DNA from: Lachnospiraceae bacterium
GTDB taxonomy: Bacteria > Bacillota > Clostridia > Lachnospirales > Lachnospiraceae
Assembly (NCBI GenBank): GCA_022794265.1
Contig: JAAWEK010000003.1
Location: 409,195 to 473,194 of the forward strand
Length of the DNA: 64,000 nt
Direction of reading: 5' to 3'
Notes under the pieces: model-generated
What the model was told of the DNA's origin: nothing
Databases searched by the model: none
What the model saw: the letters and a program-made list of their open reading frames with translations, nothing else
Translations under genes and position numbers: made by a program
Shown here: in pieces, positions 12,577-64,000 of the stretch
How the letters are laid out: each line of letters starts with the position of its first letter
Numbering within the stretch: position 1 is the first letter of the stretch

Positions 12577-12633
12577 TCTTATTACCACCTTTCTATACAT
12601 CTGTATGTTATAATTATAACTCTTAATGATTCT

Positions 12634-47876: not shown

Positions 47877-48839
47877 TTATTCATGCATTTTAAATTCAAA
47901 ATCCTCCTCCGCAAACCGAAGTATCGCGCCGTGGGGAACATATTCCCGAACCCTCTCAATATCAATGCATATCTGTCTTTGCAGCGCCTCAAGATTCTCA
48001 AATTTCCGCTCCTCCCGGATATAAAAATCAAAATACACCGCTGCCTCCGAACCATACACCTCCTCTTCAAAGTCCAGCACATGGGTCTCCACCGTAACCG
48101 CTCCGTTATCTGTTACCGTAGGGCAGGTTCCGATATTAGTAATGCTTTTATATTTCTTTCCATCGATGACTGCCGTCGTTCCGTATACACCCTGAAGCGG
48201 AAGCAGTTTGTTTTTTTCCACTGCCAGATTCAATGTACGGATTCCAATCGTACGGCCCAGCTGTCTGCCTTTGATTACGGTTCCTATTATGAAATACCGG
48301 TATCCCAGCATGTTTTCCGCTTCTTTCAGGTTTCCCTGGCCCATGGCCTGCTTAATCCTGGAACTGCTGATTTTTTCATTTTTATACAGACAGCTGGATA
48401 TGGTAATAACGGAATAGTCAAACCGGTTGCTGTAACGAATCAGGGTATCCACACTTCCCTTCCGGTCCTTTCCGAAACGAAAATCCGGTCCGGTAACCAC
48501 GGTTCTCGCCCCTAATTCTCCTGCAAGTATCTCTCTTATAAAATCTTCCGCCGACATTGCCATGGTCTGTTCATTGACCGGAAACAAAACCATGTGTTCA
48601 ATTCCGAATGTTTCACATAACTGCGCCCGTTCCCGAAAAGTGGTCAGGGAACTGACTCCCTTCCGTTTCGCCGTATCAAAGGAAAATAAAACAGGTGATA
48701 ATCCGGACTGTTTTTTTTCCTGAATCAACCGCCGGATCAACTCCTGATGTCCCAAATGAAGTCCATCAAATTTTCCCAGAGTAACCGCCGTGCCGTTCAG
48801 TCCGATATTATCGCCTGTTGTATAAATTTGCATGTTCAT
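47877..48839 (-). CDS. ribF: Bifunctional riboflavin kinase/FAD synthetase
   Basis: 320 residues. It phosphorylates riboflavin to FMN and adenylylates FMN to FAD. N-terminal nucleotidyltransferase with GKFDGLHLGHQELI near 25 and the ISSSRIK motif near 160, C-terminal flavokinase with GTVIKGRQLGRTIGIRTLNL. The usual PTANL of the flavokinase reads RTLNL here, a conserved-site change that deserves note. ATG 48839 overlaps the end of truB; ATG 48833 fits the AAAGGA spacing slightly better. Confidence 0.92.
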   Translation of the reverse strand: MNMQIYTTGDNIGLNGTAVTLGKFDGLHLGHQELIRRLIQEKKQSGLSPVLFSFDTAKRKGVSSLTTFRERAQLCETFGIEHMVLFPVNEQTMAMSAEDFIREILAGELGARTVVTGPDFRFGKDRKGSVDTLIRYSNRFDYSVITISSCLYKNEKISSSRIKQAMGQGNLKEAENMLGYRYFIIGTVIKGRQLGRTIGIRTLNLAVEKNKLLPLQGVYGTTAVIDGKKYKSITNIGTCPTVTDNGAVTVETHVLDFEEEVYGSEAAVYFDFYIREERKFENLEALQRQICIDIERVREYVPHGAILRFAEEDFEFKMHE

Positions 48840-49804
48840 TCTTCCTTTCTTCCCATCTGTCTGCAGCAAAACATTTTATTTGACTTAAATGTCCGGTTTC
48901 GCTTCTGATATTCATAAACTGCCAGAAAACGACCGGAAGAATCATGAATCCGGAACCATTGCCCGTCTTCCACACCGGCTTCCATATTGACTGCATCAGA
49001 AAAAGACTCCCATGCAAGTACATTTCCGTTTCTTACCAGTTTATCCGCATGCGGCATGGTCTTCAGTACCGGATACTCTTCCAGGGCTTTTTCGGTTTCC
49101 AGCAATATGCCGGATTCAAAAAAGCGTCCTTCGTTCCACAGCTCTTCAATCTCCGATAAGGTATGACTGTCTGTTATATGAAATCTTCCCACTGCATTCC
49201 GCACAAGAGATGCCATACACCCTCCGCAGCCCAATCTGCTGCCGATGTCATGGCAAAGGGTCCGTATATAAGTGCCTTTGGAACAGCGGACAATCAATTC
49301 CGCGCGGGGTATTTCCATGCTTACAATTTCTATATTATAAATCTCAACATTCCGCGGCTTTCGTTCCACCTCAATACCTTCCCTGGCAAGCTCATATAAT
49401 TTCTTTCCGTTTACTTTTAATGCAGAATACATAGGCGGTATCTGACTGTATACACCAGTAAATCCCAAAACTGCCTGCCGGATTTCCTTCGTGCTTAATT
49501 CCTTCCATGAATTGTTTCCGCCGATGATTGTTCCACTGGTATCCTGTGTATCCGTAACGGTACCAAGCAGTAATCCCGCCTGATATTCCTTTGTCTTATC
49601 CGTTAAAAGTTCGCAGAGTTTCGTTGCATTTCCGATACATACCGGCAGAACCCCTTCCGCATCCGGGTCCAGTGTTCCAGTATGGCCGATTTTCTTTGTC
49701 TTCAGTATGCCCCGAAGCTTTGCTACCACATCATGAGAAGTAAATCCCGGTTCCTTATAGACATTTATGATTCCATTTATCATCTGCTCTGCCATTTCCA
49801 TCAT
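48836..49804 (-). CDS. truB: tRNA pseudouridine(55) synthase TruB
   Basis: 322 residues. It makes pseudouridine 55 in the T-arm of tRNAs. The catalytic Asp is in HTGTLDPDAEGVLPVCIG near residue 45, with KEYQAGLLLGTVTDTQD and the RCSKGTYIRTLCHDIG motif later. Its start overlaps the nrnA stop (ATGA), so translation is coupled; internal Met codons at positions 4 and 8 are other candidates. Confidence 0.95.
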   Translation of the reverse strand: MMEMAEQMINGIINVYKEPGFTSHDVVAKLRGILKTKKIGHTGTLDPDAEGVLPVCIGNATKLCELLTDKTKEYQAGLLLGTVTDTQDTSGTIIGGNNSWKELSTKEIRQAVLGFTGVYSQIPPMYSALKVNGKKLYELAREGIEVERKPRNVEIYNIEIVSMEIPRAELIVRCSKGTYIRTLCHDIGSRLGCGGCMASLVRNAVGRFHITDSHTLSEIEELWNEGRFFESGILLETEKALEEYPVLKTMPHADKLVRNGNVLAWESFSDAVNMEAGVEDGQWFRIHDSSGRFLAVYEYQKRNRTFKSNKMFCCRQMGRKEE

Positions 49805-50760
49805 CCCAATTGTTTTTCAATCTGCTGGGAAATATTGTTGATAACATCATACATATTTCCTTTCATGTTAAAACCGGCTGCCCGTATATGTCCGCCTCCG
49901 CCAAAATAGGTGGCAATTTTGCTGACATCCACGATTTCATTGGAGCGAAGGCTTACCTTATATTCCAGTTCCGCTACTTCATACAGGAATATGGCGCATT
50001 CCACTCCTTTTGTAATTCTTAACTGCTCCACGACCCCATCCAAATCTTTGCTGGTAATATTATAAAATTCCATAATATCCCGTTTAATCACGGAAAAAAT
50101 ACATTTTCCGTTAAAGAAGAGAATACTTTCTAATAAAGCCCTTCCCAGTACCTGATTCTGAACATAGGTCTTGGAATAAAAAGTATTATCAATAATCCAG
50201 GTAAAAGGAATTCCCATTTCCATCAGCCTGCCTGCAACATTCATGGTGTGAGCCGAGGTATTGGAATACTTAAACGCCCCGGAATCATGGACGATTCCAA
50301 GGTATAAGGCACACGCCGTATCATAATCTATCAAGGATTCTTCCAGCATATCATAAACAACTTCGCTGGTGGAACTAGCCGTAGGATAGACAATATTTTC
50401 AGAAGCATATTTATTATTACTGATATGATGGTCAATACAAATTGTCCGTTTTGCCTGATCAAAATAGGGTTCAAATTCTCCCAGTCTGTCTCTGTCGCTG
50501 GAATCCAGAAGGATAAACAAATCATACTCTTCCATTTTATCCACTGAAGAAATAATCTCTTCTGAATATTTTAAAAACTTAAATTTCTCAGCAATGGGCT
50601 GTAAATATAAATCTGCTTCTATCTCTGGAAAATTCTTCCGAATATAGGCATAAAGCCCAAGGCCGGCGCCAACACAGTCTCCATCGGGCCTGATATGACC
50701 GCCGATACCCAGTTTCTTAACTCCTGCCAAATAATCTTTTATTTTTTCGGTTACCTGCAA
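49801..50760 (-). CDS. nrnA: Bifunctional oligoribonuclease/PAP phosphatase NrnA
   Basis: 319 residues. DHH-DHHA1 enzyme that degrades short RNA and pAp. Motifs: GHIRPDGDCVGAGLGL near 22, LLDSSDRDRLG near 85, CIDHHISN near 110, and GGGGHIRAAGF near 290. Position between rbfA and truB is the standard one for NrnA, which makes the assignment firmer than for the other two DHH proteins here. TTG 50760 follows GGAGGTG. Confidence 0.92.
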   Translation of the reverse strand: MQVTEKIKDYLAGVKKLGIGGHIRPDGDCVGAGLGLYAYIRKNFPEIEADLYLQPIAEKFKFLKYSEEIISSVDKMEEYDLFILLDSSDRDRLGEFEPYFDQAKRTICIDHHISNNKYASENIVYPTASSTSEVVYDMLEESLIDYDTACALYLGIVHDSGAFKYSNTSAHTMNVAGRLMEMGIPFTWIIDNTFYSKTYVQNQVLGRALLESILFFNGKCIFSVIKRDIMEFYNITSKDLDGVVEQLRITKGVECAIFLYEVAELEYKVSLRSNEIVDVSKIATYFGGGGHIRAAGFNMKGNMYDVINNISQQIEKQLG

Positions 50761-50783
50761 CGGTTACACCTCCATTACAAATC

Positions 50784-51164
50784 TCATTCTTCCTGTTCCA
50801 TATCATCTTTTAAATCTTTTGTAACATCATCAATCAGTTTTGACATATTTACTCCGTATTCAATTGACTGATCAAGAATAAAAATTATTTCCGGTGTGTT
50901 CCGCAGATTAATGGTGGCTGCCAGTTGTCTCCGGATATAACCTTCCGCACTTTTTAAACCTTCCAGCGTACTCTTCTGGGATTCTTCATCACCCAGAACA
51001 CTGATATAAGCCTTACACTGTTTCAGATCCGGGGTTACTTCCACGGAAACCACACTTGTCATGGGATTTATGCGTGGGTCTTTAATCTCCCCACGGATGA
51101 TATTACTTAATTCACGCAACACTTCTCCGTTAATTCGCGTATTCTTTATGCTGTTCTTTCTCAT
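50784..51164 (-). CDS. rbfA: Ribosome-binding factor A
   Basis: 126 residues, KH-like fold. It binds the 16S 5' helix during 30S maturation and cold adaptation. Signature RINGEVLRELSNIIRGEIKDPRI at the start and STLEGLKSAEGYIRRQLA in the middle. It sits between infB and nrnA. Confidence 0.95.
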   Translation of the reverse strand: MRKNSIKNTRINGEVLRELSNIIRGEIKDPRINPMTSVVSVEVTPDLKQCKAYISVLGDEESQKSTLEGLKSAEGYIRRQLAATINLRNTPEIIFILDQSIEYGVNMSKLIDDVTKDLKDDMEQEE

Positions 51165-51259
51165 TTTTATTAACCTATTTCCTTTATATTTAATACTATC
51201 TGCTTATTTTTTTATTAATGATGCTTCTGCAAAAATGCTGAAAGGAAAACCGCCAGAGT

Positions 51260-53755
51260 TTATCGCGGAACTTCTTCCATAACATATGCCTCAACAATAT
51301 CGCCCTCTTTTACATCATTATATTTTTCAAAAACAAGGCCACACTCATAATTGGATTTTACTTCCTTCACATCATCTTTAAATCTCTTTAAGGAAGCCAG
51401 CGGTCCATCAAATAACTGTTCTCCGTCCCTGGTAATTCTGCAGCTGCAGCCTCTGCGGAATACGCCGTCCAGTACATAGGAACCCGCAATGGTACCCACA
51501 CCGGAAGCCTTAAATATCTGCCGCACTTCCGCATGACCGATGACTTTTTCTTCAAAAACAGGATCTAACAGTCCCTTCATGGCCTTTTCAATATCGTCAA
51601 TAGCCTGATAGATGACACGGTATAATCTTAAATCTACATTTTCCCGGTCTGCGATTTCTTTTGCCATGTTATCTGGTCTTACATTAAAGCCGATAATAAT
51701 GGCATTGGATGCAGATGCCAGAATCACATCCGATTCATTGATGGCGCCGACACCAGCATGTATGGCTTTTACCACAACTTCCTCATTGGACAGTTTCACA
51801 AGACTTTGTTTCACGGCCTCAACGGAACCCTGTACATCGGCTTTTACTATAATATTTAATTCTTTCAGTTCTCCTGCCTGAATCTGGCTGAATAAATCAT
51901 CCAGCGACATTCTGGTTTTTGACTTTGAACCTTCCAGAAGCTTTTCTCTTCCGTCTTTGATAAAGGTTTCCGCAAAATTTCTTGCCTCTTTTTCATTCTT
52001 TGTTGCCACCAGAACTTCTCCGGCATTCGGAACACCGTTCAGACCCAGTATTTCCACCGGTGTGGACGGTCCTGCTTCATTCACCCGCTCCCGCTGGTCA
52101 CCAGACATAGCGCGGACTTTACCGTAGAAAGAACCTGCTGCCACGGCATCTCCAACCCGCAGCGTTCCCTTCTGTACCAGAACAGTTGCCACCGGTCCCT
52201 TACCTTTATCCAGCTTCGCTTCAATCACAAGTCCTCTGGCCTTCCGGTTCGGATTCGCTTTCAGTTCACAGACTTCCGCCTCCAGCAGTATCATTTCCAG
52301 CAGCAGTTCAATACCTTCTTTGGTATGGGCAGATACTGGAACAAATATGGTCTGGCCGCCCCAGTCTTCCGCCACCAATTCATATTCTGCAAGTTCCTGT
52401 TTTACTTTATCAATATTGGCGCTAGGTTTATCAATTTTATTGACCGCAACAATAATGCTGATGCCTGCCGCCCTGGCATGGTTGATGGCTTCAACGGTCT
52501 GCGGCATAACGCCGTCATCGGCGGCTACTACCAGAATCGCAATATCCGTCGACTGCGCGCCTCTCATACGCATGGCAGTAAACGCCTCATGTCCCGGCGT
52601 ATCCAGAAATGTAATCTTTTCTCCATTAACTTCCACAGTATATGCGCCTATATGCTGGGTGATTCCGCCGGCCTCTCTGTCGATGACATTGGTTTCCCTT
52701 ATGGCATCCAGCAGGGAGGTTTTACCATGATCAACATGCCCCATAACACACACAACCGGAGGTCTCTTTACCAGCTTGCTTTCGTCTTCTTCTTCCTCCC
52801 GGAGAAGCTCTTCTATAATATCTACTTTTTCTTCCTGTTCCGCAATCACTTCAAACTGCAGTGCGATATCCTGTGCAGTTTCAAAATCTACTTCCTGATT
52901 GATGGTTACAATCTGTCCCTGCATAAATAATTTTTTTACAATAACGGATGGCTGGATTTTCATTTTATCTGCCAGTTCTTTAATCGTCAGATATTCCGGT
53001 ATGGTAATTTCCCTGATTTCTTCTTTGGTTTCCTGTACCGGCTGCGGTTTATTCACATTATTGCGGTTATTGTTATTCTTCTGACCATTGTTCTTATGAT
53101 TATTGTTTCCTTTCTGGTTCGTCCGGGTTCCACGGTTTTCATTATTTCTTACATTATTATTTCTGTCATTATTCCTGTTATCATTATTTCTTACATTGTT
53201 ATTTCTGTCATTATTCCTGTTATTATTATTTCTGTCATTATTTCTATTGTTTCCGCTCTGACCGTCATTTTTTACGTTATTTTTATTATCCGTATTTTTT
53301 GTGTTTTCATTTTTCATATCACGTTTTGGATTACTTTTAGTTTCATTCTGTTTCGGCGCCTGATTCGTATTACTACTTCTTCCGTCACCGTTTTTATGAT
53401 TATTACCGTTGTTATTATTTTTTTTATTCTGTTTTTGTTTATTATGATTTCCACTGTTCTGCGGATTGTATACCTGGGTGATATGTGACTTCTTCTCCGC
53501 TTCTTTTGCTTCCGGTTTCCTGACCGGTTTCTGTCCGGACTCCGGTTTTTCCTTGGATTTTGCCGGTTCCTCTTTCCTGTTTTCACTGCCGCCAGCATTT
53601 GGGCTAAGTTCTTTTTTTACCAACACGGCTGTTTCTTCCGTAATGGAACTCATATGGGTTTTTGCTTCAATGCCATGTTGTGCCAGCACCTTTAAAATAT
53701 CCTTTGAGTCTTTACCCAATTGTTTTGCCAGTTCATGAACTCTTATATTCGACAT
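51260..53755 (-). CDS. infB: Translation initiation factor IF-2
   Basis: 831 residues. GTPase that positions initiator tRNA. IF2 N-domain at 1-50, then a linker of about 150 residues dominated by Asn, Lys, Arg and Asp (about 95-240), a second IF2_N domain (about 250-300) and the G domain with GHVDHGKT at 339-346, DTPGHEAF and NKID. The C-terminal domains are complete. The linker contains 14-residue repeats encoded by 42-bp tandem repeats. Confidence 0.97.
53140..53223. repeat. Two 42-bp tandem repeats within infB
   Basis: Copies at 53140-53181 and 53182-53223 differ at two positions and encode an Asn/Arg/Asp 14-residue unit. Degenerate shorter units flank them. In-frame length change is possible. 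Confidence 0.8.
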
Positions 53756-53860
53756 TCTATTACCTCTTTTCTGCGCTGCATGCTACATCTTTTTACCGTT
53801 TTGTGACCAGGCAGCGCATAGACACAAACCGTATATTATACGTTCTTTTTTGTTATTGTT

Positions 53861-54163
53861 TCATGTTTTCATTAAATTTATAATTGTATCTGCAAAACCA
53901 TTATCCTGAACCGAAACGGAAGCCCTGCTGCCTTTTCCGATGGCATGGCCCAATACCTCTTTAGAACTGTAAAAGTAAATCGGTACATTATAATAGGTAC
54001 ACATATTTATAAACATTTTTTTTGTGTTATCCGATGCTTCTTCCGCCACAATTACCAGACGGGATTTTCCGGTTTTCACAGATTTCTCAACGGAAAATTC
54101 TCCGCTTGCCACTTTACCGGCTCTCATAGCCATACCCAGCATTGATAATACCTTATCTGCCAT
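53861..54163 (-). CDS. ylxQ: L7Ae-family RNA-binding protein YlxQ
   Basis: 100 residues. L7Ae/L30e fold, K-turn RNA binding. The N-terminal LGMAMRAGKVASGEFSVEKSV and LVIVAEEASDNT match the family. It lies between ylxR and infB in the conserved nusA operon. The C-terminus retains the typical GKGSRASVSVQDNGFA. Confidence 0.93.
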   Translation of the reverse strand: MADKVLSMLGMAMRAGKVASGEFSVEKSVKTGKSRLVIVAEEASDNTKKMFINMCTYYNVPIYFYSSKEVLGHAIGKGSRASVSVQDNGFADTIINLMKT

Positions 54164-54179
54164 TCTGTTTTTCCTCTGC

Positions 54180-54452
54180 CTATATTTTTTCTTCCATCGA
54201 CGCTTTCAGATTTTCATATACCTGTGATGATATCTTCATCTTAAATGAACGCTCCAGACCATGATTTTTCATACTTTTCTCAAAACATTCCCTGGAAGCG
54301 CACAGATACGCACCTCTTCCATTTTTCCTTCCGGTGGTGTCTACCACAAATTCTCCCTCTGCTGTTTTCAGTATTCGTATTAGTTCTTTTTTTGATTTCA
54401 TTTCACCACAGCCAATACACATGCGCATGGGGATTTTTTTTGCTGCCGCCAT
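54180..54452 (-). CDS. ylxR: YlxR/RnpM, RNase P modulator family
   Basis: 90 residues. DUF448 protein; the Bacillus homologue RnpM binds and modulates RNase P RNA. The signature PMRMCIGCGEMKSKKELIRI is followed by DTTGRKNGRGAYLC and a Cys-Cys pair spaced as in the family. ATG 54452 is placed by AGGTG seven bases upstream; a GTG two codons earlier lies inside that site. Confidence 0.93.
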   Translation of the reverse strand: MAAAKKIPMRMCIGCGEMKSKKELIRILKTAEGEFVVDTTGRKNGRGAYLCASRECFEKSMKNHGLERSFKMKISSQVYENLKASMEEKI

Positions 54453-54473
54453 ATTCACACCTGTCTTTCCGGC

Positions 54474-55553
54474 TTATTCTTCACTGAAATCCGCTTCTTC
54501 GCTCTCAGCCTGCTCCGCTTCCTTTGCCTGTGTTTCACTCTTAATGTCAATCTTAAATCCAGTGAGTTTCGCCGCCAGTCTGGCATTAATTCCACCTTTG
54601 CCAATGGCAAGGGATAACTGGTAATCCGGAACTACAACTTTTGCTGTTTTGGCAACATCATCTGCTATCACCGATACCACTTTGGCAGGACTTAACGCAT
54701 TTTCCACATAAACCGCCGCATTGTCACTCCAAGGCACAATATCAATTTTTTCACCGCGAAGTTCATTTACGATAGCATTGACTCTGGCTCCATTGACACC
54801 TACGCAGGCTCCCAACGGGTCCACATGTTTGTTATTGGATTTTACGGTTATTTTGCTTCTTACGCCCGGTTCCCTGGAAACACTGACAATTTCCACGGTT
54901 CCGTCCCTGATTTCCGTTACCTCCGCCTCAAATAAACGTTTTACCAATCCCGGATTTGCTCTGGATACGGTGATTTTAGGCCCTTTTGGAGAGTCTTTGA
55001 CTTCCGATACATATAATTTAATACGCTCTGTAGGCATAAATACTTCTGTAGGCACCTGTTCGGATTCCAGCAAAACGGCATCTGCCTTTCCCAGATTAAT
55101 GCTTATATTTTTTCCGTTTATCCGCTGTACAATTCCCGTTACGATATCATTTTCTTTGGCAAAATACTGGTCAAACACTACTTTTCGTTCTTCTTCCCTG
55201 ATTTTCTGAAGAATAATATTTTTTGCTATCTGTGTGGATATACGTCCGAATTCCCTGGATTTGACATCCACCTTAACCACATCACCCAGTTCATATTTAA
55301 TATCCAGTTCCTTTGCTTTTTCCAAAGAAATCTCTGTTGCCGGGTCTTCCGGATCTTCTACCACGGTCTTATCCGCAACAATGCTGAAATCGCCTGTTTC
55401 ACGGTTTACGCTTACCGTAACATTATCCGCTTTACCATAATTATTCTTATACGCCATTATTAATGAATTTTCAATGGCTTCAAAGATTACTTCCTTGCTG
55501 ATGTCTTTCTCCTTTTCCAGAATATTTAATGATTCAATTAATTCGCTGTTCAT
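54474..55553 (-). CDS. nusA: Transcription elongation factor NusA
   Basis: 359 residues, the Firmicute length without the C-terminal acidic repeats. N-terminal polymerase-binding domain, S1 domain (about 130-200), KH1 (GACVGVNGARVNAIVNELRGEKIDIVPW) and KH2 (LAIGKGGINARLAAKLTGFKIDI). It modulates pausing, termination and antitermination. Between rimP and ylxR. Confidence 0.97.
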   Translation of the reverse strand: MNSELIESLNILEKEKDISKEVIFEAIENSLIMAYKNNYGKADNVTVSVNRETGDFSIVADKTVVEDPEDPATEISLEKAKELDIKYELGDVVKVDVKSREFGRISTQIAKNIILQKIREEERKVVFDQYFAKENDIVTGIVQRINGKNISINLGKADAVLLESEQVPTEVFMPTERIKLYVSEVKDSPKGPKITVSRANPGLVKRLFEAEVTEIRDGTVEIVSVSREPGVRSKITVKSNNKHVDPLGACVGVNGARVNAIVNELRGEKIDIVPWSDNAAVYVENALSPAKVVSVIADDVAKTAKVVVPDYQLSLAIGKGGINARLAAKLTGFKIDIKSETQAKEAEQAESEEADFSEE

Positions 55554-55596
55554 GACTGTTCACATTTCTCCTTTTCTGATTAGATTTATTCCATAT

Positions 55597-56061
55597 TTAA
55601 AAATCAAACGCAAGTCTGATCAATGCAATTTCATTTCGTTCAAATGTAAGGGATTCTCCCCCATCTTCTATGGTCACCGTTTCCTTATCATAAGAACAAA
55701 GGGTTCCTGTATATTCTTTGTTTCCGTTTTTCGCCCGGTACAAACGGATATCTACATCTTTTCCAATACTTCTTTCAAAATCTTTTTCTTTTTTTAACGG
55801 TCTTCCCAGTCCTGGAGAACTTACTTCCAGAATATATGCATCCTCAATGTAGTCTCTCTCATCCAGTAAATCGCTTAACGCCCTGCTGACCAGCTCGCAG
55901 TCATCCACATTGATTCCGCCCGGTTTATCGATGTATACTCTCAGATACCAGCAACTGCCTTCTTTTACATATTCCACATCCACCAGTTCAAATTGATTCT
56001 GCTGAATTATTGGCAACACCAGCTCCTCTGTCTTTGACTCATATAAATCTCTTTTTGACAA
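55597..56061 (-). CDS. rimP: Ribosome maturation factor RimP
   Basis: 154 residues. Needed for 30S assembly. N-terminal domain with FELVDVEYVKEGSCWYLRVYIDKPGGI, the central LEVSSPGLGRPLKKEKDFERSIG motif, and a C-terminal SH3-like domain. TTG start 56061 after GGAGGAGG. First gene of the rimP-ribF operon; its leader carries a strong hairpin. Confidence 0.95.
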   Translation of the reverse strand: MSKRDLYESKTEELVLPIIQQNQFELVDVEYVKEGSCWYLRVYIDKPGGINVDDCELVSRALSDLLDERDYIEDAYILEVSSPGLGRPLKKEKDFERSIGKDVDIRLYRAKNGNKEYTGTLCSYDKETVTIEDGGESLTFERNEIALIRLAFDF

Positions 56062-56081
56062 TCTGCCTTACCTCCTCCAAT

Positions 56082-56113
56082 ATGAAAGAGTGGACTCACG
56101 CCCACTCTTTCAT
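56082..56113 (-). promoter_or_regulatory. Stem-loop in the rimP leader
   Basis: Perfect 12-bp stem ATGAAAGAGTGG/CCACTCTTTCAT with an eight-base loop, between the promoter and the rimP ribosome binding site. No T-run follows before the start codon, so it is more likely an mRNA stability or regulatory element than a terminator. Confidence 0.6.
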
Positions 56114-56135
56114 GATAACTCTATTAACTTCATTG

Positions 56136-56164
56136 AGTATAACACCGATATTTCCTATTTGCAA
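56136..56164 (-). promoter_or_regulatory. Sigma-A promoter of the rimP-ribF operon
   Basis: TTGCAA and TATACT exactly 17 bases apart on the minus strand. Confidence 0.8.
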
Positions 56165-56195
56165 CACTTTTTTTTATTTTCCTGTTTTTCAAAGG

Positions 56196-56224
56196 TTGTT
56201 TTTTTGGTGAAAAAATGTTAAAAT
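56196..56224 (+). promoter_or_regulatory. Possible promoter of the DHH gene
   Basis: TTGTTT and TAAAAT 17 bases apart on the plus strand, 32 bases before the start codon and divergent from the rimP promoter. Confidence 0.5.
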
Positions 56225-56255
56225 AAAGCAAATTCTTTGACATGGGGGCAAGACA

Positions 56256-57176
56256 ATGCGATTAATTACAAGATCAGATTTTGATGGACTGGCATGTGCC
56301 GTATTACTAAAGGAAGCAGGAATTATCAGTTCCTATAAATTTGCACATCCAAAGGATTTGCAGGACGGTCTCATAGAGGTAACAAAGGATGACTGTCTGG
56401 CAAATGTTCCGTTCGTGGAAGGCTGCGGTTTGTGGTTTGACCACCACTCCAGTGAGCAGGAGAGAAATGCTTACAAAGGAAAATATGAAGGCTCCAGTAA
56501 AATGAGTCCCAGCGCTGCGCATGTAGTCTATGACTATTATGGCGGCAAAGAGCGTTTTCCTCGCTTTGATGATTTACTGGCAGCCGTTGACAAAGTCGAT
56601 TCTGCAAATCTCACCAAAGAAGAAATTCTGAATCCTCCGCAGTGGGTTTTATTAGGATTTATCATGGACCCGAGAACTGGTCTCGGCCGGTTCCGAAACT
56701 TCACCATCAGTAATTATCAGCTTATGGAAAAATTAATTGAATGGTGCCGAACAATGTCCATTGAGGAAATCATGGAGCTGCCGGATATCGTAGAACGGAA
56801 AGAACTATATTTTGAACAGTCCGAAAAGTTTATTGAAATGGTCAAAGCTCATACCAAAGTGAGAGATAACGTTATCATCAGTGATTTAAGAAATCTGCCG
56901 ACCATTTATACCGGAAACCGGTTTATGATTTACAGCCTGTATCCGGAGGCAAATATTTCCTGCTGGATTGTATCCGGCCGGGGCGGTCAGGGTTGTTCCT
57001 GTGCCGTGGGTTACAGTATTCTGAACAAAACCAGTAAAGTAGACGTTGGTGCTCTCATGCTGAAGTATGGAGGAGGCGGACATAAGGCCGTGGGTACCTG
57101 CCAGTTTTCCGATGAGACAATGGATGAAAAAGTACCACAACTGCTGAATGAGCTTGTGGAACTGAATAAGCAGTGA
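56256..57176 (+). CDS. DHH/DHHA1 family phosphoesterase
   Basis: 306 residues. DHH-fold hydrolase. The N-terminal TRSDFDGLACAVLLKEAG lacks the usual histidine-rich opening but has two Asp; WFDHHSSEQ near residue 68 is the DHH motif; AAVDKVDSANL near 108 and a DHHA1-type GGGGHKAVGTC near 270 complete the set. This pattern resembles the exopolyphosphatase-like subgroup rather than NrnA. Monocistronic with its own terminator. Substrate unknown. It marks the end of the ordinary housekeeping segment before the van genes. Confidence 0.85.
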   Translation: MRLITRSDFDGLACAVLLKEAGIISSYKFAHPKDLQDGLIEVTKDDCLANVPFVEGCGLWFDHHSSEQERNAYKGKYEGSSKMSPSAAHVVYDYYGGKERFPRFDDLLAAVDKVDSANLTKEEILNPPQWVLLGFIMDPRTGLGRFRNFTISNYQLMEKLIEWCRTMSIEEIMELPDIVERKELYFEQSEKFIEMVKAHTKVRDNVIISDLRNLPTIYTGNRFMIYSLYPEANISCWIVSGRGGQGCSCAVGYSILNKTSKVDVGALMLKYGGGGHKAVGTCQFSDETMDEKVPQLLNELVELNKQ

Positions 57177-57218
57177 TACGTTTTTCTACATAATTAAAAT
57201 TGGCAGAAAAAACTATTT

Positions 57219-57268
57219 AAAAATGCTTTCAGCAGTGGGTATGAATAGCTGCAGAAAGCATTTTTATT
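57219..57268. terminator. Terminator between the DHH gene and vanX
   Basis: A stem AAATGCTTTC-AGCAG with CTGC-AGAAAGCATTT, 13-base loop, followed by T-rich sequence on both strands. It serves the DHH gene and probably the van operon, whose last gene vanX ends 80 bases away. The rest of the 170-base gap shows nothing else. Confidence 0.85.
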
Positions 57269-57347
57269 ATTCTATAAAATTTAGAATACAAAACACAGAT
57301 TTTTTTGGATTTGTGGATGGTTGTGTTGATATTTCTTCAAACTCCCA

Positions 57348-57959
57348 CTATGCAATGTAAAAATTAAAATATGTATTTGGGTACGGTTCATCTGCCAGAA
57401 CATAATGCCACCACTCATTACAATAGGCTTCAAATCCGCTGCTTTCCATGATATGACGCAGACATTCCCGGTGTCTTGATTCCTCCTCTGTCAGTCCGCT
57501 TGCAGTGTGATGGGACCGTTCATCCATAAAATCGAAATCTCCGCCCATAGGAACAAGCATACCAGTATCTAACTGAAAAATCGTGAGATCAACCGCACCT
57601 CCGCGGCTATGGCTGGACTGTGAGGCTACATATCCCTTTTCAACCATCTCATTCCTCTTTATATTTGGGTAATACCGCTTTTTCGTCAGATTGTTCTCCG
57701 GAAGTGACGCCCAATGCAGAAAGTAATCTACGGCACACTGTGGGCGATAACCATCCCACAAGAGCAGACCATACCCCTGTTTCATGGCAAGTTTTTGAGC
57801 TTTGAGTAAAGCGGCTCCCAGTTCTTTGGTCCCTGCAATACGGTTCACCTTATATCCATCCACCGGTTTTCCTGTGAAATTATCCCATGTAGCATATTTT
57901 GCGTCCCAACGGATGCCGGGCAGCATTTCATCCAAAAAAATAAAATTCTTTTTCATCAT
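57348..57959 (-). CDS. vanX: D-Ala-D-Ala dipeptidase VanX
   Basis: 203 residues. Zinc dipeptidase that destroys D-Ala-D-Ala so that only D-Ala-D-Lac enters the wall precursor. Zinc ligands and catalytic residues: SSHSRGGAVDLT (His and Asp near 116-123), Glu/His in ECLRHIMESSGFEAYCNEWWHY near 185, and WDGYRP near 68. ATG 57959 overlaps the end of the ligase region with AGGAGG seven bases ahead. Last gene of vanYHDX. Confidence 0.96.
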   Translation of the reverse strand: MMKKNFIFLDEMLPGIRWDAKYATWDNFTGKPVDGYKVNRIAGTKELGAALLKAQKLAMKQGYGLLLWDGYRPQCAVDYFLHWASLPENNLTKKRYYPNIKRNEMVEKGYVASQSSHSRGGAVDLTIFQLDTGMLVPMGGDFDFMDERSHHTASGLTEEESRHRECLRHIMESSGFEAYCNEWWHYVLADEPYPNTYFNFYIA

Positions 57960-57961
57960 GT

Positions 57962-58993
57962 TTACCTCCTGAGCGCCAGTTTAATCAAACGGTCAATAAG
58001 TTCCGAAAGGGTAAAGCCAGCCGCAGTCATCATACGTGGATAGCGGCTATACGAAGTAAAGCCAGGCATGGTATTCACTTCATTGAGAACAATATGCCCG
58101 TCCTCACGTAAAAACAGGTCAATACGGGCCAATCCTCTACAACCGAGTGCCTGATAAATTTGTTTAGCTGTTTGCTGAATCCGTTCTCTTACCTCTGCTG
58201 ACAGGTCAGCCGGAACTTTGATCATTGCATTTTCAGACCCCTTTTCAGGCTGCGCTTCCTGGTGAATCTTGAAAAAACCGTGTTTCAGGATGATCTGATC
58301 GACCTCGCCTACAATTAAGTCAGTACCGGTTCCCAATACGGCGCAGCCCACCTCACTCCCGGAAACTGTCTGCTCAATCAATACTTTTCTATCATATTTC
58401 CTGGCTTCATTTATCGCTGCGAATAAATCCTCCGCTTTATCTACCTTGTTTACTCCAAAGGAAGAACCGGAACGTGCAGGTTTCACAAAAAGAGGAAATT
58501 CAAAATCCTCTATTTCCGGGCTGCCATCGGTCTGGATAATCTGAAAATCAGGGACCTCTATACCTGCATTTTTTACAGTGGTATAGGCAAGAGACTTGTC
58601 CATACAAATCACAGAACTTTGAATATCACATCCAACATAAGGAATACCAGATAGTTCGAGCAGCCCCTGTATTGATCCATCTTCCCCGAATTTGCCATGA
58701 ATAATCGGAAACACTACATCTATAGGTTGGGTTTCATATCCATCATCTTTTTGTATCAGCAAACCATGCGTATTTCTCCCCGGCGAAAAGACGACCGGAT
58801 TTTCCGCATATTCTTCCCAATCAATGCAAGGCTTTTCGCACAGTTTCCAAACTCCGGATTTTGTAATCCCAATATAAAAAGGTTGATATTTTTCCGTATC
58901 TATGTTTGCGGCAAGCTCCATTGCAGATTTTATCGATACAGTATGTTCTTCTGAACAGCCCCCGAACAGGACCGCAACGTTTATTTTATACAT
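57962..58993 (-). CDS. vanD: D-Ala-D-Lac ligase, VanD type
   Basis: 343 residues, as in VanD. ATP-grasp ligase joining D-Ala and D-lactate, which lowers vancomycin binding. The start MYKINVAVLFGGCSEEHTVS, the middle KPARSGSSFGVNKV and the omega-loop GFFKIHQEAQPEKGSENAMI are those of the VanA/VanB/VanD branch; His in KIHQE marks D-Lac specificity. The sequence resembles remembered VanD more than VanA or VanB. The start ATG 58993 follows AAAGGAG and overlaps vanH by eight bases. Confidence 0.94.
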   Translation of the reverse strand: MYKINVAVLFGGCSEEHTVSIKSAMELAANIDTEKYQPFYIGITKSGVWKLCEKPCIDWEEYAENPVVFSPGRNTHGLLIQKDDGYETQPIDVVFPIIHGKFGEDGSIQGLLELSGIPYVGCDIQSSVICMDKSLAYTTVKNAGIEVPDFQIIQTDGSPEIEDFEFPLFVKPARSGSSFGVNKVDKAEDLFAAINEARKYDRKVLIEQTVSGSEVGCAVLGTGTDLIVGEVDQIILKHGFFKIHQEAQPEKGSENAMIKVPADLSAEVRERIQQTAKQIYQALGCRGLARIDLFLREDGHIVLNEVNTMPGFTSYSRYPRMMTAAGFTLSELIDRLIKLALRR

Positions 58994-59957
58994 TTCCAAG
59001 ACTCCTTTCAAAATTCAGACAATTTAGAATCGTATTGCTCACTGTATCAACTAACACCCGTTCCGTATGGTAGGCCGTATGCGGCGTAACAATCACATTT
59101 GGCATTCTTTGGAGGACAGATAAGTAGGGATGGTCTAACGTCTTATGTGTACAGTCATAATAAAAAATTCCTTCTTCGCCTTCCAATACATCTAAGGCGG
59201 CACCTCCAATTCTCTCATCTTCCAGCGCATCTACCAGTGCCTGGGTGTCCACTAAAGCGCCCCGCGCCGTATTGATAAGAAGCGCCTCTTTCTTCATCAT
59301 TTCTAACTGTTCACGGCCAATCATATGGAAAGTATCTTCTGCCAGCGGAACATGAAGCGTAATGATGTCGCTGCTTTGTAACAGTTCACAAAACGAAACA
59401 TAGTCTGCTCCAGGCCTGTGATTACGGTCATATGCCAGCACCGTACAGCCAAATCCCTTCAGACGTTCCATGACTGCCTGTCCGATTCGCCCGGTTCCCA
59501 TCACACCAACCGTCATATCCCGCAGTTCCTTACCTCGCAGGTTATTCAGACAATAATTCTGTCTTTCTGCCATGTGTATTACGGATTTTGTTCCACGCAT
59601 CAGCATAAGCATCAACATAATGCTATAGTCGGCAACGCTCCCCGGTGAGTATGCTACCGTGCCGATGGTTATACCCATTTTCCCAGCCGCCTGTATATCA
59701 ATGTGGTTAAAGCCGATACTCCGGGTACAGATATATTTTACTCCTGCGTTTTTCAGCTCAAAAAGCAGAGGTTCCGATAGTTCGGCTTTATGGCTTACGC
59801 TGATACACCGGCATCTGGCGGCTAATTTTACATTGTTTTCCGAAACGGCTTCTTTTATGAGTGAGACCGTAACACCTAATTCATAGGAAAGTTTATTGAA
59901 AACCGCCGCTTCGTCCGGCTCACATCCATAAACAGTAATATCAATCTCTTTCTTCAT
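58986..59957 (-). CDS. vanH: D-lactate dehydrogenase VanH
   Basis: 323 residues. NAD(P)H-dependent reduction of pyruvate to D-lactate, the substrate of the ligase. 2-hydroxyacid dehydrogenase fold: TRSIGFNHIDIQAA near 85, nucleotide loop GVMGTGRIGQAVMERL near 150, catalytic Arg in NTARGALVD near 235, Glu in GAALDVLEGEEG near 262 and His in VTPHTAYHTE near 295. It overlaps vanY by 17 bases; GGAGG lies inside the end of vanY. Confidence 0.95.
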   Translation of the reverse strand: MKKEIDITVYGCEPDEAAVFNKLSYELGVTVSLIKEAVSENNVKLAARCRCISVSHKAELSEPLLFELKNAGVKYICTRSIGFNHIDIQAAGKMGITIGTVAYSPGSVADYSIMLMLMLMRGTKSVIHMAERQNYCLNNLRGKELRDMTVGVMGTGRIGQAVMERLKGFGCTVLAYDRNHRPGADYVSFCELLQSSDIITLHVPLAEDTFHMIGREQLEMMKKEALLINTARGALVDTQALVDALEDERIGGAALDVLEGEEGIFYYDCTHKTLDHPYLSVLQRMPNVIVTPHTAYHTERVLVDTVSNTILNCLNFERSLGNV

Positions 59958-61029
59958 TGGTTACCTCCTTAATAGCGCATTGGGTTTTTATTGCGTTATA
60001 AATATCGATACTGTCCTGAAATCTGTCATCCTCAGTAGACCCCATAACTGCGCAGATATAGGTATTTCCGTTTATGACAGCAGCAGAAACGATACATGCG
60101 CCGCTGAGACTGCTGGTTCCTGTCTTTAGGCCGATTACTTCAGGGAGATAATATTGGCTGCCTGGATTGAGAAGTTCATTTGTATTGTTATAAGTAACCT
60201 CCCGGCCATTCGGCCATCTTTCATAAGACGAATTACTTGCTACAATCTCTGAAATATAAGGGTCATCTAAACATGCCTTTGCTATAACGGCGAGATCATA
60301 TGCCGTGGTATACTGCCCATCAGCGTCATATCCATCCGGGACTACAAAATTCGAGTTTTCTGCGCCAAGCGATTTTGCCTTCCCGTTGACTTTATCCACG
60401 AACACCTGGGTAGCCTGCTTATTTGTCAGACTGTTATCGCCGGCAATTTTCTTTCCGGTATTTACCGCAAGCGTATAAGCCGCGTCATTGCCAGAAGGAA
60501 GCATAAGAGCAATTAAGAGCTGTCTGACAGTCAGGGTATCGCCCTGCATAAGCCATGCCCTTGACGAATCATCATGTATCATTTCAATTTCCGCACCTAC
60601 CCTCATTTCATCGTCCGGAGAACAGTAGTCCAGCACGGTCAAAGCCGTAATCATCTTAGCTGTGCTGGCCGGCGCAATTTTATCTGTACTGCTTTTCTGA
60701 TACAATACCGTATTGGTGTCGGCATTGATTACAATGGCGTTTGCCGCCGTGACGTCCACGGAAAGAGAATTTGCAGAGTCAGGGGAAGTGGGAACTGTCT
60801 CGTTTTGTTCGCCATCTGCCAAAGAATAATTCTCATTATTTTGAGTAACCTTTCTGCCGGGGATAGCAGTTTCTTTACCGCCTCTTATCAGATTCACAAT
60901 TCCGAATACCGTAACGGCTGTGAGTATACAGAGCACAATACATACAACCCTGTAATAACCCCTTTTTTTCTTTTTTGCTTTCCTCCGGTTCCTGCTTTCG
61001 TAGTTTCCGTTATTATTCTGATATTCCAT
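59941..61029 (-). CDS. vanY: D,D-carboxypeptidase VanY, penicillin-binding-protein type
   Basis: 362 residues. It removes the terminal D-Ala of pentapeptide precursors. The N-terminal Lys/Arg cluster and one membrane anchor (about 30-50) are followed by a serine DD-peptidase: STAK near 120, SGN near 175, KTG near 305. VanA/VanB clusters use a zinc VanY; the serine type is a mark of VanD clusters. The start ATG 61029 is within a longer frame; its AAAGGAG is 12 bases upstream, a long but usable spacing. Confidence 0.92.
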   Translation of the reverse strand: MEYQNNNGNYESRNRRKAKKKKRGYYRVVCIVLCILTAVTVFGIVNLIRGGKETAIPGRKVTQNNENYSLADGEQNETVPTSPDSANSLSVDVTAANAIVINADTNTVLYQKSSTDKIAPASTAKMITALTVLDYCSPDDEMRVGAEIEMIHDDSSRAWLMQGDTLTVRQLLIALMLPSGNDAAYTLAVNTGKKIAGDNSLTNKQATQVFVDKVNGKAKSLGAENSNFVVPDGYDADGQYTTAYDLAVIAKACLDDPYISEIVASNSSYERWPNGREVTYNNTNELLNPGSQYYLPEVIGLKTGTSSLSGACIVSAAVINGNTYICAVMGSTEDDRFQDSIDIYNAIKTQCAIKEVTNEERD

Positions 61030-61054
61030 CGTTATCCCAAACTCCTTTCTGGAA

Positions 61055-61103
61055 GTAAAAAATCGCTCCACCCGATATATAGCATATCAGAATGGAGCAA
61101 TTT
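61055..61103 (-). terminator. Terminator-like hairpin upstream of vanY
   Basis: AAUUGCUCCA pairs with UGGAGCGAUU (ten pairs, one G-U) around a 22-base loop and is followed by a U-run. It would separate vanRS from vanYHDX. Its loop contains the putative vanY promoter -10. Confidence 0.65.
61076..61084 (-). promoter_or_regulatory. Putative extended -10 of the vanYHDX promoter
   Basis: TGC-TATATA on the minus strand, without a good -35, as expected for a promoter activated by VanR from upstream sites. Confidence 0.5.
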
Positions 61104-61146
61104 ATGTTTTCGCTTTTCTTTGTGGATAATATATGATTTTTAACGG

Positions 61147-61169
61147 AATTTCTTACGATTTTCCTACGA
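61147..61169 (-). promoter_or_regulatory. Tandem VanR boxes upstream of vanYHDX
   Basis: Two adjacent direct copies, TCGTAGGAAAA and TCGTAAGAAAT, with an 11-base period; a weaker third copy (TCCGTTAAAAA) follows. They match the TCGTA-N-GAAA core remembered for VanR sites at vanH promoters. They overlap the last codons and stop of vanS, about 65 bases before the -10. Confidence 0.65.
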
Positions 61170-62306
61170 TGGGCAATGACACCTCAAAACAGGTGAGACC
61201 GTCCGCACTGTGGGCGGTAATCTGCCCGTGATGAAGTTCAATAATCTCCTTTGCAATGGCAAGTCCCAGGCCAGCCCCGCCCGTAGCGGAACTTCTTGAC
61301 ACATCCAGACGGCAGAACTGCTCAAATATTCTTTTTAATCGTTCCTGCGGGATTGTATTTCCCTCGTTCATGACTTTAATCAGCACATGATCTTCTATCT
61401 GCTCTGCAACAATCTTAATGCTTGTATCTGCATCACAATAGCTGACCGCATTTCGCAGCAGGTTATCAAATACACGTTGCATTTTATTTGCATCGCACGA
61501 AACAATAATGTCTGGCTGCATTTCAAATTCCAGCTTCAGATTTTTGCCGGCCAGCATCGGCTTAAACTCGTATGCCAACTGTTCGAGCATTCTCGTCAGA
61601 TTGATTTTGCCATATACAAGCGTAATATTGGAAAGGTTGAACCGCGTGATTTCAAAAAATTCGTTAATCAAATCCTCAAGACGTTCAGCCTTATCCAGTG
61701 ATATGGATAAATACCGTTCCCTGAGTTCATCGGAAATCTGACCTTCATCCCTTAACAGTGTCAAATATCCGATTACTGATGAAAGAGGAGTTTTTAAGTC
61801 ATGGGCCAGATACATAACAAGGTCATTTTTCCTTTGTTCCGCAAGCTCGGCATCCGACTTTCTTTTCATAAGAGTATGCCGTATGGAATTAATCTTTCTT
61901 TCCGTTGAAGCCAGTTCTGCCGGCAAAGCAATATCCTGGGCATCTTCATGCATTAGAGAATCAATGCCACGGTTAATCTCCTTAAAGTATTTTGAAACAT
62001 TGCCCACAAACATGCGAAAAATCACGAAAAACACAGCCAAAATTGCCAGCAGGAAAAGCCAAAATTCATATCTCTTAAAGGTATTCCAGTAGGTGACTAC
62101 GGCTTCATTGCGGTCATGGTAAACGAAATACTCTAAAATATAAACTACGACGTTTGCAAAATTTCCTTTTAAGATAAACAGATAAACAGATAAACACCCG
62201 CTATAATCAGAAGGGAACATGCCATCATGAGCAGCATTTTGATGGATAATCTGTTTTTAAAAAGTAAATAGTCATCTTCATATTTTGTTTTCTTTCTATT
62301 TTTCAA
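61153..62306 (-). pseudogene. vanS: Sensor histidine kinase VanS, frameshifted by an 8-bp expansion
   Basis: Kinase/phosphatase partner of VanR. The reading frame opens at TTG 62306, overlapping the vanR stop, and encodes 45 residues with the first membrane segment, then hits TAA at 62169-62171. The rest (second membrane segment, H-box LAHDLKTPLSSVIGYL, N-box NLLRNAVSYC, G-box GAGLGLAIA) is intact in another frame. Three tandem octamers AGATAAAC (plus strand, 62172-62195) cause the shift. With two copies the frame reads GVYLFILKGNF and gives 381 codons, the length I recall for VanS of VanD clusters. An ATG at 62220 could restart the downstream part, but without a ribosome binding site or first membrane segment. 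Confidence 0.88.
62172..62195. repeat. Three tandem 8-bp repeats in vanS
   Basis: AGATAAAC at 62172-62179, 62180-62187 and 62188-62195. Loss of one unit restores the gene. Such short repeats expand and contract by slippage. Confidence 0.95.
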
Positions 62307-62994
62307 TGGTATATCCCACTCCCCACACAGTTTTTATAAATTTCGGGTTCTTTGCCCGTTCCTTCATTTTTTCTCTGAGACGTCCGATATGGGCCATAAC
62401 AGTATTATTGTTATCCATATATTTTTCACCCCATATTGCTTCAAATAGCTCCTCCGTTGTAACAACCTTCCCCTGGTTTTCACACAGATACCAAAGAATG
62501 GAAAACTCTGTCGGCGTCAGTTGAATCTCTTTTCCAAACAAGATACATTTGTGACTATTCTTGCTGATTGTCATTCCTCTTATATCGTATTCACTTCGTT
62601 CAGCTTCCTGTTTGATATGGGGTTGTCTGTATCTCATATACTGTCTTAGCTGCGCTTTCACTCTGGCAACCACTTCCAGGGGATTGAACGGTTTCGTGAT
62701 ATAGTCGTCCGCAATGGACAGCCCCATGATTTTATCCCCATCAAGGGCTTTCGCTGTTAGCATAATTATAGGAAAATAAAATTTCTCCCGGATTTTCTGG
62801 CAAATTTGAAAGCCATCAATATCCGGGAGCATAATATCTAATATGGCTAAATCCAGTTCCGTGGACTCAATGCACTTTAACGCATCTGTGCCGTTGTAAA
62901 ATTTATAAACGGTAAATCCATCATTTTTCAGATAGAGTTCGACCAAATCGGCCAACTCCTTTTCATCATCAACCACTAAGATTTTTTCATTCAT
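62296..62994 (-). CDS. vanR: Response regulator VanR
   Basis: 232 residues. OmpR/PhoB family activator of the van genes. Receiver domain with DDE near residue 8, phospho-acceptor Asp in LAILDIMLPD near 53, and Lys in YITKPFNP near 102. The C-terminal winged helix contains LTPTEFSILWYLCENQGKVVTTEELFEAIWG and VWGVGYTIEK. The start ATG 62994 follows AAGGAGC; a 16-codon longer frame lacks a site. Without VanS it could be phosphorylated by acetyl phosphate or other kinases. Confidence 0.96.
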   Translation of the reverse strand: MNEKILVVDDEKELADLVELYLKNDGFTVYKFYNGTDALKCIESTELDLAILDIMLPDIDGFQICQKIREKFYFPIIMLTAKALDGDKIMGLSIADDYITKPFNPLEVVARVKAQLRQYMRYRQPHIKQEAERSEYDIRGMTISKNSHKCILFGKEIQLTPTEFSILWYLCENQGKVVTTEELFEAIWGEKYMDNNNTVMAHIGRLREKMKERAKNPKFIKTVWGVGYTIEK

Positions 62995-63064
62995 TGTATT
63001 GCTCCTTGTTTCTCCAATCAATCTGTCTTTATTATGTGCCAAAACACTGTCACATTACCAGCCG

Positions 63065-63093
63065 ATAGTAGCATAATTATAGATAATCGTCAA
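63065..63093 (-). promoter_or_regulatory. Sigma-A promoter of vanR
   Basis: TTGACG and TACTAT exactly 17 bases apart on the minus strand, about 70 bases before vanR. The -35 lies in one arm of the inverted repeat 63085-63120. Confidence 0.7.
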
Positions 63094-63120
63094 GACGGCT
63101 TACTTCCGTTCTTGACGATT
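63085..63120. promoter_or_regulatory. Inverted repeat at the vanR promoter
   Basis: AATCGTCAAGACGG and CCGTTCTTGACGATT pair with one bulged base. Each arm contains TCGTCAAGA, which resembles the TCGTAAGAA of the VanR boxes, so it may be an autoregulatory VanR site. It also covers the end of the methyltransferase remnant. Confidence 0.5.
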
Positions 63121-63512
63121 ACCCACATTAAGGGAAACAGATAGATAGGGCAGTTGGTAAATTCATTCCCAACATATTTTTCTAAGAGTTTGTTAATTGC
63201 TTTCTCACGGCGAATAAAATAGTTTACTGTCCAACATTGTTCCGGCAAAGCAAAAGACGCAATAAACTGATAACCGCATTTCTGCATGGTTTCTATATTT
63301 TCACTGATAGAATCCAATCGGCTTCCCGCATCTGTCCAAAACTTTTGAACAACCGTCGGCTGTTCTATTGTAAGCCAAGATGGACAGGTTACTGCGACAA
63401 AACCTTCTTTTTTAAGAAAATCATGCCAGTGTGAAAGTCCCTTTTCAAAACCAATGTTATCAATCGCACCTTCCGACCAGATTAAATCCAGGGAATTCTT
63501 TTGAAATGGCAA
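63090..63512 (-). pseudogene. 5'-truncated SAM-dependent methyltransferase remnant
   Basis: 140 codons from TTG 63512 match the C-terminal half of a class I methyltransferase: LPFQKNSLDLIWSEGAIDNIGFEKGLSHWHDFLKKEGFVAVTCPSW. The SAM-binding glycine loop is missing; in-frame sequence upstream reaches a stop within about 65 bases and belongs to the next gene. The last 20 residues also depart from the usual end. So it is a remnant, probably not functional. Confidence 0.75.
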
Positions 63513-63552
63513 GTTTCCATTTTTATTTCCTCCATAAATTTCAGTTTGAAAA

Positions 63553-64000
63553 TCACTTCTTTTTGATAAGCTTCAGTTTTATATTTCTTCTTTCAGCAAT
63601 CTTCTGAAACACCTCTACCACATACAAGCATTGTGCCTTAAATGGTAGTGAAGACAATTCGTCATTGGATTGTATTTGCTTTATTGCTTCTTGTAGTTCT
63701 GAAAGATCTAATAAATTGACTGCCACACAAAAGAAATTCTTCCTACGCCCGTCATTATAGTTAGAAAGTAAGTAAGAAAGAATTTGTGTTTTTTCCTGCT
63801 GTTCAAAATTATATTGCTCAATGCCAATTTTTTTTGCTCTTTCTAAATCTGCTTTTTGTCGCCTGCTTGTAATAAAAAGGTCATATTCATCAATGTGTTG
63901 ATATTTTTCGCATGGATATTGTTTGCATTCATAGCAATATTCAATCTTTCCATGTTCAAGACTGCATTTCGCAATTTTGCATGATTGATTACCATTGCCG
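63553..64000 (-). CDS. DUF3795 protein, N-terminus cut off by the window edge
   Basis: The last 148 codons of a reading frame entering from the right edge. Cys pattern CKIAKC...YCYECKQYPCEKYQHID at the visible start is typical of the Cys-rich DUF3795 domain, probably metal binding. A helical C-terminal part rich in Lys, Gln and Glu follows. The stop is 40 bases before the methyltransferase remnant. Function unknown; such proteins are often accessory. Confidence 0.75.
   Translation of the reverse strand, partial: GNGNQSCKIAKCSLEHGKIEYCYECKQYPCEKYQHIDEYDLFITSRRQKADLERAKKIGIEQYNFEQQEKTQILSYLLSNYNDGRRKNFFCVAVNLLDLSELQEAIKQIQSNDELSSLPFKAQCLYVVEVFQKIAERRNIKLKLIKKK

What the first reader, a model, noticed from the sequence alone, without database searches (positions are those of the whole stretch)
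61153..62306. vanS inactivated by a reversible 8-bp tandem expansion
Three head-to-tail AGATAAAC units put vanS out of frame; two units give an unbroken 381-codon gene. Loss of VanS phosphatase activity is known to leave VanR phosphorylated in VanD-type enterococci and to make resistance constitutive. A slippable repeat at codon 40 would make this an on/off switch between inducible and constitutive states rather than a dead gene.
Basis: partly seen in the sequence, partly recalled or inferred. Interest (0 to 1): 0.78.

Follow-up and report, generated by a model that had tools for sequence, protein, structure and literature searches.

The report
Frameshifted vanS in VanD cluster
A probable gut bacterium's vancomycin-resistance cluster has lost its drug sensor through a small repeated-DNA mutation, which probably leaves resistance always on; this is a recent mutation of a known kind, not shown to be a switch.

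Summary
The minus-strand vanS of a VanD-type cluster (vanRSYHDX) carries 3.12 perfect head-to-tail octamers at 62172-62196. The upstream frame stops directly behind the array after 45 codons; the kinase part is open only in another frame. Of 17 close relative loci, 16 (13 distinct sequences) have an unbroken 381-codon vanS; the 17th (L016) lost its 3' part. None has three units. An exact octamer pair occurs in 3 of the 13 and is eroded in 10, so it is no maintained contingency repeat. dN/dS of the kinase part is low (0.09-0.17, five relatives), so the break is young. The other van genes, two VanR boxes before vanY and the host ddl are intact. In print, a stop after codon 30 of VanSB gives constitutive resistance. 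Best reading: recent loss of VanS with probably constitutive, VanR-driven resistance (not measured). Reversal by slippage is possible but unshown; 'switch' is not supported. A conserved terminator-like hairpin between the VanR boxes and vanY adds an untested layer.

The parts
62172..62196 (-). octamer array, 3.12 perfect copies (AGATAAAC on +, GTTTATCT on -)
62169..62306 (-). vanS upstream piece: 45 codons from TTG plus stop TAA; keeps membrane helix 1 only
61153..62220 (-). vanS downstream piece in another frame (355 aa from an ATG with no ribosome-binding site evident by eye); keeps helix 2 and the kinase part, lacks helix 1
62296..62994 (-). vanR-D response regulator, intact
   Evidence: NCBIfam vanR-D 518.5 bits, cut-off 500; start taken where the profile match begins in ORF 62296-63042
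61147..61169 (-). two VanR boxes (11-base spacing, sharing one base) across the vanS stop codon; both fit the published consensus (T/C)CGTANGAAA(T/A)T
   Evidence: consensus from a PMC4405338 passage
61057..61103 (-). hairpin plus T-run between the VanR boxes and vanY: terminator or attenuator candidate
   Evidence: window and 12 relatives; 5 loci folded, z -6.5 to -6.9; the simple terminator scan found none; no Rfam match
59941..61029 (-). vanY-D carboxypeptidase, intact
   Evidence: NCBIfam 661.1 bits, cut-off 625
58986..59957 (-). vanH-D dehydrogenase, intact
   Evidence: NCBIfam 613.8 bits, cut-off 550
57962..58993 (-). VanD D-Ala-D-Lac ligase, intact
   Evidence: NCBIfam 713.3 bits, cut-off 700
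57348..57959 (-). VanX dipeptidase, intact
   Evidence: NCBIfam 350.4 bits, cut-off 320

Best explanation
A recent frame-shifting gain in an accidental tandem octamer repeat (most likely replication slippage) broke vanS early, inside the first membrane helix, in an otherwise intact VanD-type cluster of a probable Lachnospiraceae-type gut bacterium. No working sensor is expected: the first piece is a 45-residue peptide with one helix, and the kinase piece lacks helix 1 and any evident start signal near its beginning. Without VanS phosphatase, VanR phosphorylated by acetyl phosphate or by another kinase stays active at the two VanR boxes before vanY, so vanYHDX is probably expressed without drug. 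Shown: the break, the intact neighbours, the unbroken relatives. Inferred: slippage as cause, absence of an evolved switch, constitutive expression, the host's kind.
For: Array and frames. Unbroken 381-codon vanS in 16 of 17 close relative loci (13 distinct), no three-unit array in any of the 17. Octamer pair exact in 3 of 13 distinct relatives and eroded in 10, as expected of a by-product of coding. Kinase part dN/dS 0.09-0.17 against five relatives, within the range of the intact neighbours (0.054-0.208). Other cluster genes intact. VanR boxes intact. Precedents (passages): a stop after codon 30 of VanSB is constitutive (PMC8541618); almost all genetically characterised vanD enterococci carry vanR/vanS and/or ddl changes (PMC10765050); a 30-bp duplication in C. 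difficile vanS raised vanG-cluster expression (PMC11326576).
Against: No expression data. VanR without its sensor may stay mostly unphosphorylated in this host. A second, intact VanRS-like pair on contig C19 could dephosphorylate VanR as well as phosphorylate it. The conserved hairpin in the vanY leader could hold expression down. Intact ddl departs from the usual constitutive VanD strain. The kinase piece might be made from ATG 62220, or a shorter one from starts further down, two of which (61815, 61671) have purine-rich letters before them. dN/dS only shows that the break is young compared with the divergence from these relatives.
Confidence: 0.7

Rival explanations
1. Phase-variable switch: the array gains and loses units often enough that the population always holds both sensor states (inducible and constitutive), and selection keeps the repeat. 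(Not exclusive of constitutive expression in the state seen.)
For: Unit length not divisible by three, perfect copies, position early in the gene; 3 x 6-bp arrays in mutL convert both ways in a mutator Salmonella (PMC2955026 passages).
Against: Pair not conserved in relatives, no three-unit relative; only three units, far shorter than typical contingency tracts (recalled); the same study found no conversion in non-mutators.
Confidence: 0.06
2. VanS is lost and the cluster is silent: without the kinase VanR is not phosphorylated enough, and the leader hairpin stops the rest.
For: Conserved hairpin with T-run behind the VanR boxes in the window and 12 of 12 relatives aligned; intact ddl means the cell does not need VanD; two relatives show vanRSY without vanHDX in the stretch fetched.
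Against: Enterococcal VanS null is constitutive; vanHDX kept intact here.
Confidence: 0.17
3. Sequence or assembly artefact: the real genome has an unbroken vanS.
For: 16 of 17 close relative loci have an unbroken gene; the gene lies about 1.7 kb from the contig end.
Against: An exact 8-base gain in a 25-base array is not a usual read or assembly error (recalled); the downstream frame is otherwise clean.
Confidence: 0.06
4. The downstream frame is translated from ATG 62220 or a later start and gives a short VanS without helix 1 that acts as an unregulated kinase.
For: Open 355-aa frame that scores above the VanS cut-off; the two frames overlap by 86 nt.
Against: No ribosome-binding site seen by eye before ATG 62220; no X XXY YYZ heptamer in the upstream frame.
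Confidence: 0.07

Closest known systems
VanB-type E. faecalis with a stop after codon 30 of VanSB (Lefort 1999, as told in PMC8541618 passages; original not read)
   Same: early loss of VanS; expected constitutive resistance
   Different: here the cause is a frame-shifting octamer gain, the cluster is VanD-type and the host a probable gut anaerobe; phenotype unknown
VanD-type enterococci with vanS and/or ddl changes (PMC10765050 and PMC8301612 passages)
   Same: VanD-type cluster, altered sensor
   Different: here ddl is intact, so no dependence on VanD is expected; the cluster sits beside the infB-nusA group of the host
C. difficile vanS 30-bp duplication (PMC11326576 passages)
   Same: short duplication in vanS that changes van expression
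   Different: that one is a 10-residue in-frame gain, in a vanG cluster, and arose under drug in the laboratory
mutL 3 x 6-bp repeat allele conversion (PMC2955026 passages)
   Same: three short perfect units inside a gene whose copy number decides function
   Different: in mutL three is the working state and two-way conversion was seen (in a mutator line); here three is the broken state and conversion is unseen

Membership tests
VanD-type glycopeptide resistance cluster | VanD ligase, VanH-D, VanY-D, VanX, VanR-D above curated cut-offs, order R-S-Y-H-D-X | tested here: met
   (713/700, 614/550, 661/625, 350/320, 518/500 bits), order
VanD-type glycopeptide resistance cluster | VanS sensor present as one unbroken gene | tested here: not met
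   two frames; kinase piece 449/400 bits
VanD-type enterococcal phenotype | impaired host Ddl (usual, not universal) | tested here: not met
   ddl open, Pfam N and C domains nearly full length
VanD-type enterococcal phenotype | constitutive expression | not testable with these tools
   needs RNA or precursor analysis
Phase-variable contingency locus | frame-altering tandem repeat in the coding part | tested here: met
Phase-variable contingency locus | repeat kept in relatives | tested here: not met
   exact pair in 3 of 13 distinct unbroken relatives, triple in 0 of 17 close loci
Phase-variable contingency locus | several array lengths within one strain or species | not testable with these tools
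   one genome per species held; no reads; metagenome scans capped at 0

The most novel reading that the evidence does not exclude
The octamer array is a slow but real stochastic switch that lets a gut commensal keep a minority of cells with drug-independent D-Ala-D-Lac walls, a heritable bet-hedge on a sensor kinase of antibiotic resistance.
Probability: 0.06. Interest if true: 0.72.

Novelty: new member of a known kind. Interest (0 to 1): 0.3.

Why it matters
It is a natural loss of the VanS sensor in what looks like a gut anaerobe (a possible source group of vanD, PMC8301612 passages) with intact ddl. If the inference holds, constitutive VanD-type expression exists outside enterococci without dependence on it. 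It also shows how an accidental codon repeat can become a mutation site in a resistance sensor.

Tried and rejected
Rejected: recoding at the break (no X XXY YYZ heptamer in the upstream frame); restart close to the stop (no in-frame ATG, GTG or TTG between 62220 and 62040); old pseudogene (low dN/dS); a viral or plasmid home of this vanS (no viral contigs match; 421 plasmid records match parts of the 7-kb cluster query, none over 80% of it, best places all at 60-80% identity). Led nowhere: Rfam on 56000-64000 (none); Pfam and NCBIfam for the ORFs 56256-57176 and 63090-63512 (no match); species name (genome unnamed); sigma-70 scan of 60900-63300 (6 sites, 6.4 expected). The terminator scan in the same call found 0 sites (1.8 expected): it misses the hairpin, I think because the stem is interrupted. 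VanR-box pattern at up to one mismatch: 12 matches in the window against 16.0 expected, so only the two exact, adjacent ones mean anything; I drew the pattern after seeing the sites and met the published consensus afterwards. Literature: ten searches. Among the rows listed (not every hit was listed) I saw no slippage switch in vanS; subscription papers are mostly not held. Rows: one search kept the best 80 of 82; one search listed 97 matches in 86 of 397 genomes at E <= 1e-80, 4 of 97 with an in-frame stop inside, not sorted by van type. The 17 close loci are all those, the window's own left out, at about 77% VanS identity or more; L003, whose protein was the query, is one of them.

Full report
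What is there. The window ends at the end of a 473-kb contig of a 2.88-Mb genome. On its minus strand lies a VanD-type cluster in the order vanR, vanS, vanY, vanH, vanD, vanX. All genes except vanS are single open frames that pass their curated NCBIfam cut-offs. vanS starts at TTG 62306, overlapping the end of vanR, and stops after 45 codons at TAA 62171-62169, directly behind an array of 3.12 perfect octamers at 62172-62196. The rest of vanS is open in another frame from 62256 to 61153, with a first ATG at 62220. That 355-aa frame matches VanS at 449 bits (cut-off 400).

Its close VanS relatives come mostly from named Lachnospiraceae or uncultured gut genomes, so 'Lachnospiraceae-type gut bacterium' is an inference.

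Is it more than chance? In 444 kb of the same genome (window plus 19 stretches) this is the only perfect array of three or more copies with a unit of 5 to 12 bases. Twelve random sets of that length made with Markov models gave 14 such arrays, none with unit 8. Such an array somewhere is thus unremarkable. What matters is where it lies, and that it breaks the gene.

Relatives. A scan of species genomes and of 397 genomes of the host's family gave 17 loci whose VanS is at least 77% identical to that of L003, L003 itself included. In 16 the gene is unbroken and 381 codons long; three pairs are identical copies from the two collections, so 13 are distinct. The 17th, L016, is open past the site but has lost its 3' part. 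The octamer pair is exact in 3 of the 13 (L004, L007, L008), one base short in 2 (L005, L006) and more eroded in 8; in L016 it is eroded too. Three exact units occur in none of them: the pattern hits only the three copies of the window's own locus among 155 loci. The pair is simply how some of these genes spell part of membrane helix 1. The window is the sequence with a gain. Intact copies exist, and the repeat is not conserved as a repeat.

Age. The kinase part, taken alone in its own frame, shows dN/dS of 0.134, 0.171, 0.101, 0.102 and 0.090 against L003, L004, L005, L006 and L008 (5 of the 16 unbroken loci). Its neighbours range from 0.054 (vanR) to 0.208 (vanY); vanH, vanD and vanX gave no match in L004 and L006, and vanX only a part in L005. 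The break is young compared with the divergence from these relatives.

What the pieces can do. The upstream piece keeps helix 1 (hydropathy peak 2.6); the first 110 residues of the downstream frame show only helix 2 (first window at or over 1.6 at residue 48). There is no slippery heptamer of the X XXY YYZ kind in the upstream frame. By eye there is no ribosome-binding site before ATG 62220; of the 12 in-frame starts listed, 61815 and 61671 have purine-rich letters before them, but these would give kinases cut at or behind the phospho-histidine region (my reading). A working, sensing VanS is very unlikely.

Consequence. [quoted passage not shown] It cites a VanSB with a stop after codon 30 that is constitutive to vancomycin and teicoplanin. 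That is close to the window's case. Two VanR boxes that fit a published consensus (PMC4405338, passages) lie across the vanS stop codon, ahead of vanY. They are the only exact matches in the window; at one mismatch the pattern is no commoner than chance, and there is no match before vanR. So VanR-driven, drug-independent vanYHDX expression is the likely state. This is inference; nothing here measures expression.

Two complications. First, the host ddl, next to a gene that looks like murF by eye, is intact, unlike most VanD enterococci (PMC10765050 and PMC8301612, passages). The cell would make both precursors and rely on VanX and VanY, not depend on VanD. Second, between the VanR boxes and vanY lies a hairpin of -21.6 to -24.6 kcal/mol (5 loci folded) followed by a T-run. 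It is there in the window and 12 of 12 relatives aligned, with 16 predicted pairs, mostly unchanged or changed on one side; only one pair has a two-sided change, so covariation support is weak. The simple terminator scan did not report it. If transcription from the VanR boxes starts before it, it is an attenuator; if not, it ends the vanRS message. Either way it makes the step from VanR to resistance less certain. A further VanRS-like pair, intact and with no van enzyme beside it by eye in the 3.9 kb fetched, lies on contig C19 and could talk to VanR in either direction.

Switch or not. For: the unit shifts the frame, and in Salmonella a 3 x 6-bp array in mutL converted both ways in a mutator line; locking that repeat lowered mutability (PMC2955026, passages). 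Against: no conversion was detected in non-mutators in that study, though its authors note that rare conversion could have escaped them; the array here has only three units; it is absent or eroded in relatives; only one allele of this species can be seen with these tools. Slippage back is possible in principle, as for any short tandem gain, but that does not make it a contingency locus. I give a real switch 6%.

Novelty. VanS changes in VanD-type clusters are known; a 30-bp duplication in C. difficile vanS that raises van expression has been described (PMC11326576, passages). Among the rows listed by my ten searches I saw no slippage switch in vanS. The finding is a new member of a known kind, with a neat cause.

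Noticed in passing
window 61057-61103 (-), with 12 relatives: Conserved terminator-like hairpin and T-run between two VanR boxes and vanY in the window and 12 of 12 relatives aligned, without an Rfam match: possible attenuation of vanYHDX; covariation support weak.
   Followed up: partly
L016 (Extibacter muris, second van cluster), 6890-12695: A second VanD-type cluster in a genome that also has an unbroken one (L003); its vanS loses its 3' part to a permease-like ORF, and vanY, vanH, vanD and vanX look damaged by eye.
   Followed up: partly
L004 2330-4036 and L006 8038-9697: vanRSY without vanHDX in the stretch fetched, in an uncultured Lachnospiraceae genome and in Cuneatibacter caecimuris, the latter with two short vanH-like scraps; L004 also carries an insertion between the hairpin and vanY.
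   Followed up: partly
G000:C19:54402-55277 (L091): Second VanS-like kinase (405 bits, cut-off 400) with its regulator and no van enzyme beside it in 3.9 kb; possible cross-talk with VanR.
   Followed up: partly
window 57330-63150: Homology to relatives' clusters covers about this 5.8-kb block; on one side stand the gene 56256-57176 and the infB-nusA-rimP group, on the other the contig ends within 1 kb. In three same-genus genomes the 56256-57176 gene has no other match to window 48001-64000 in the 9-13 kb fetched around it. Looks like a separately acquired cassette.
   Followed up: partly
window 53135-53245: Imperfect tandem arrays (15-, 27- and 42-base periods) inside infB (831-aa IF-2), coding an Asn-rich stretch.
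   Followed up: no
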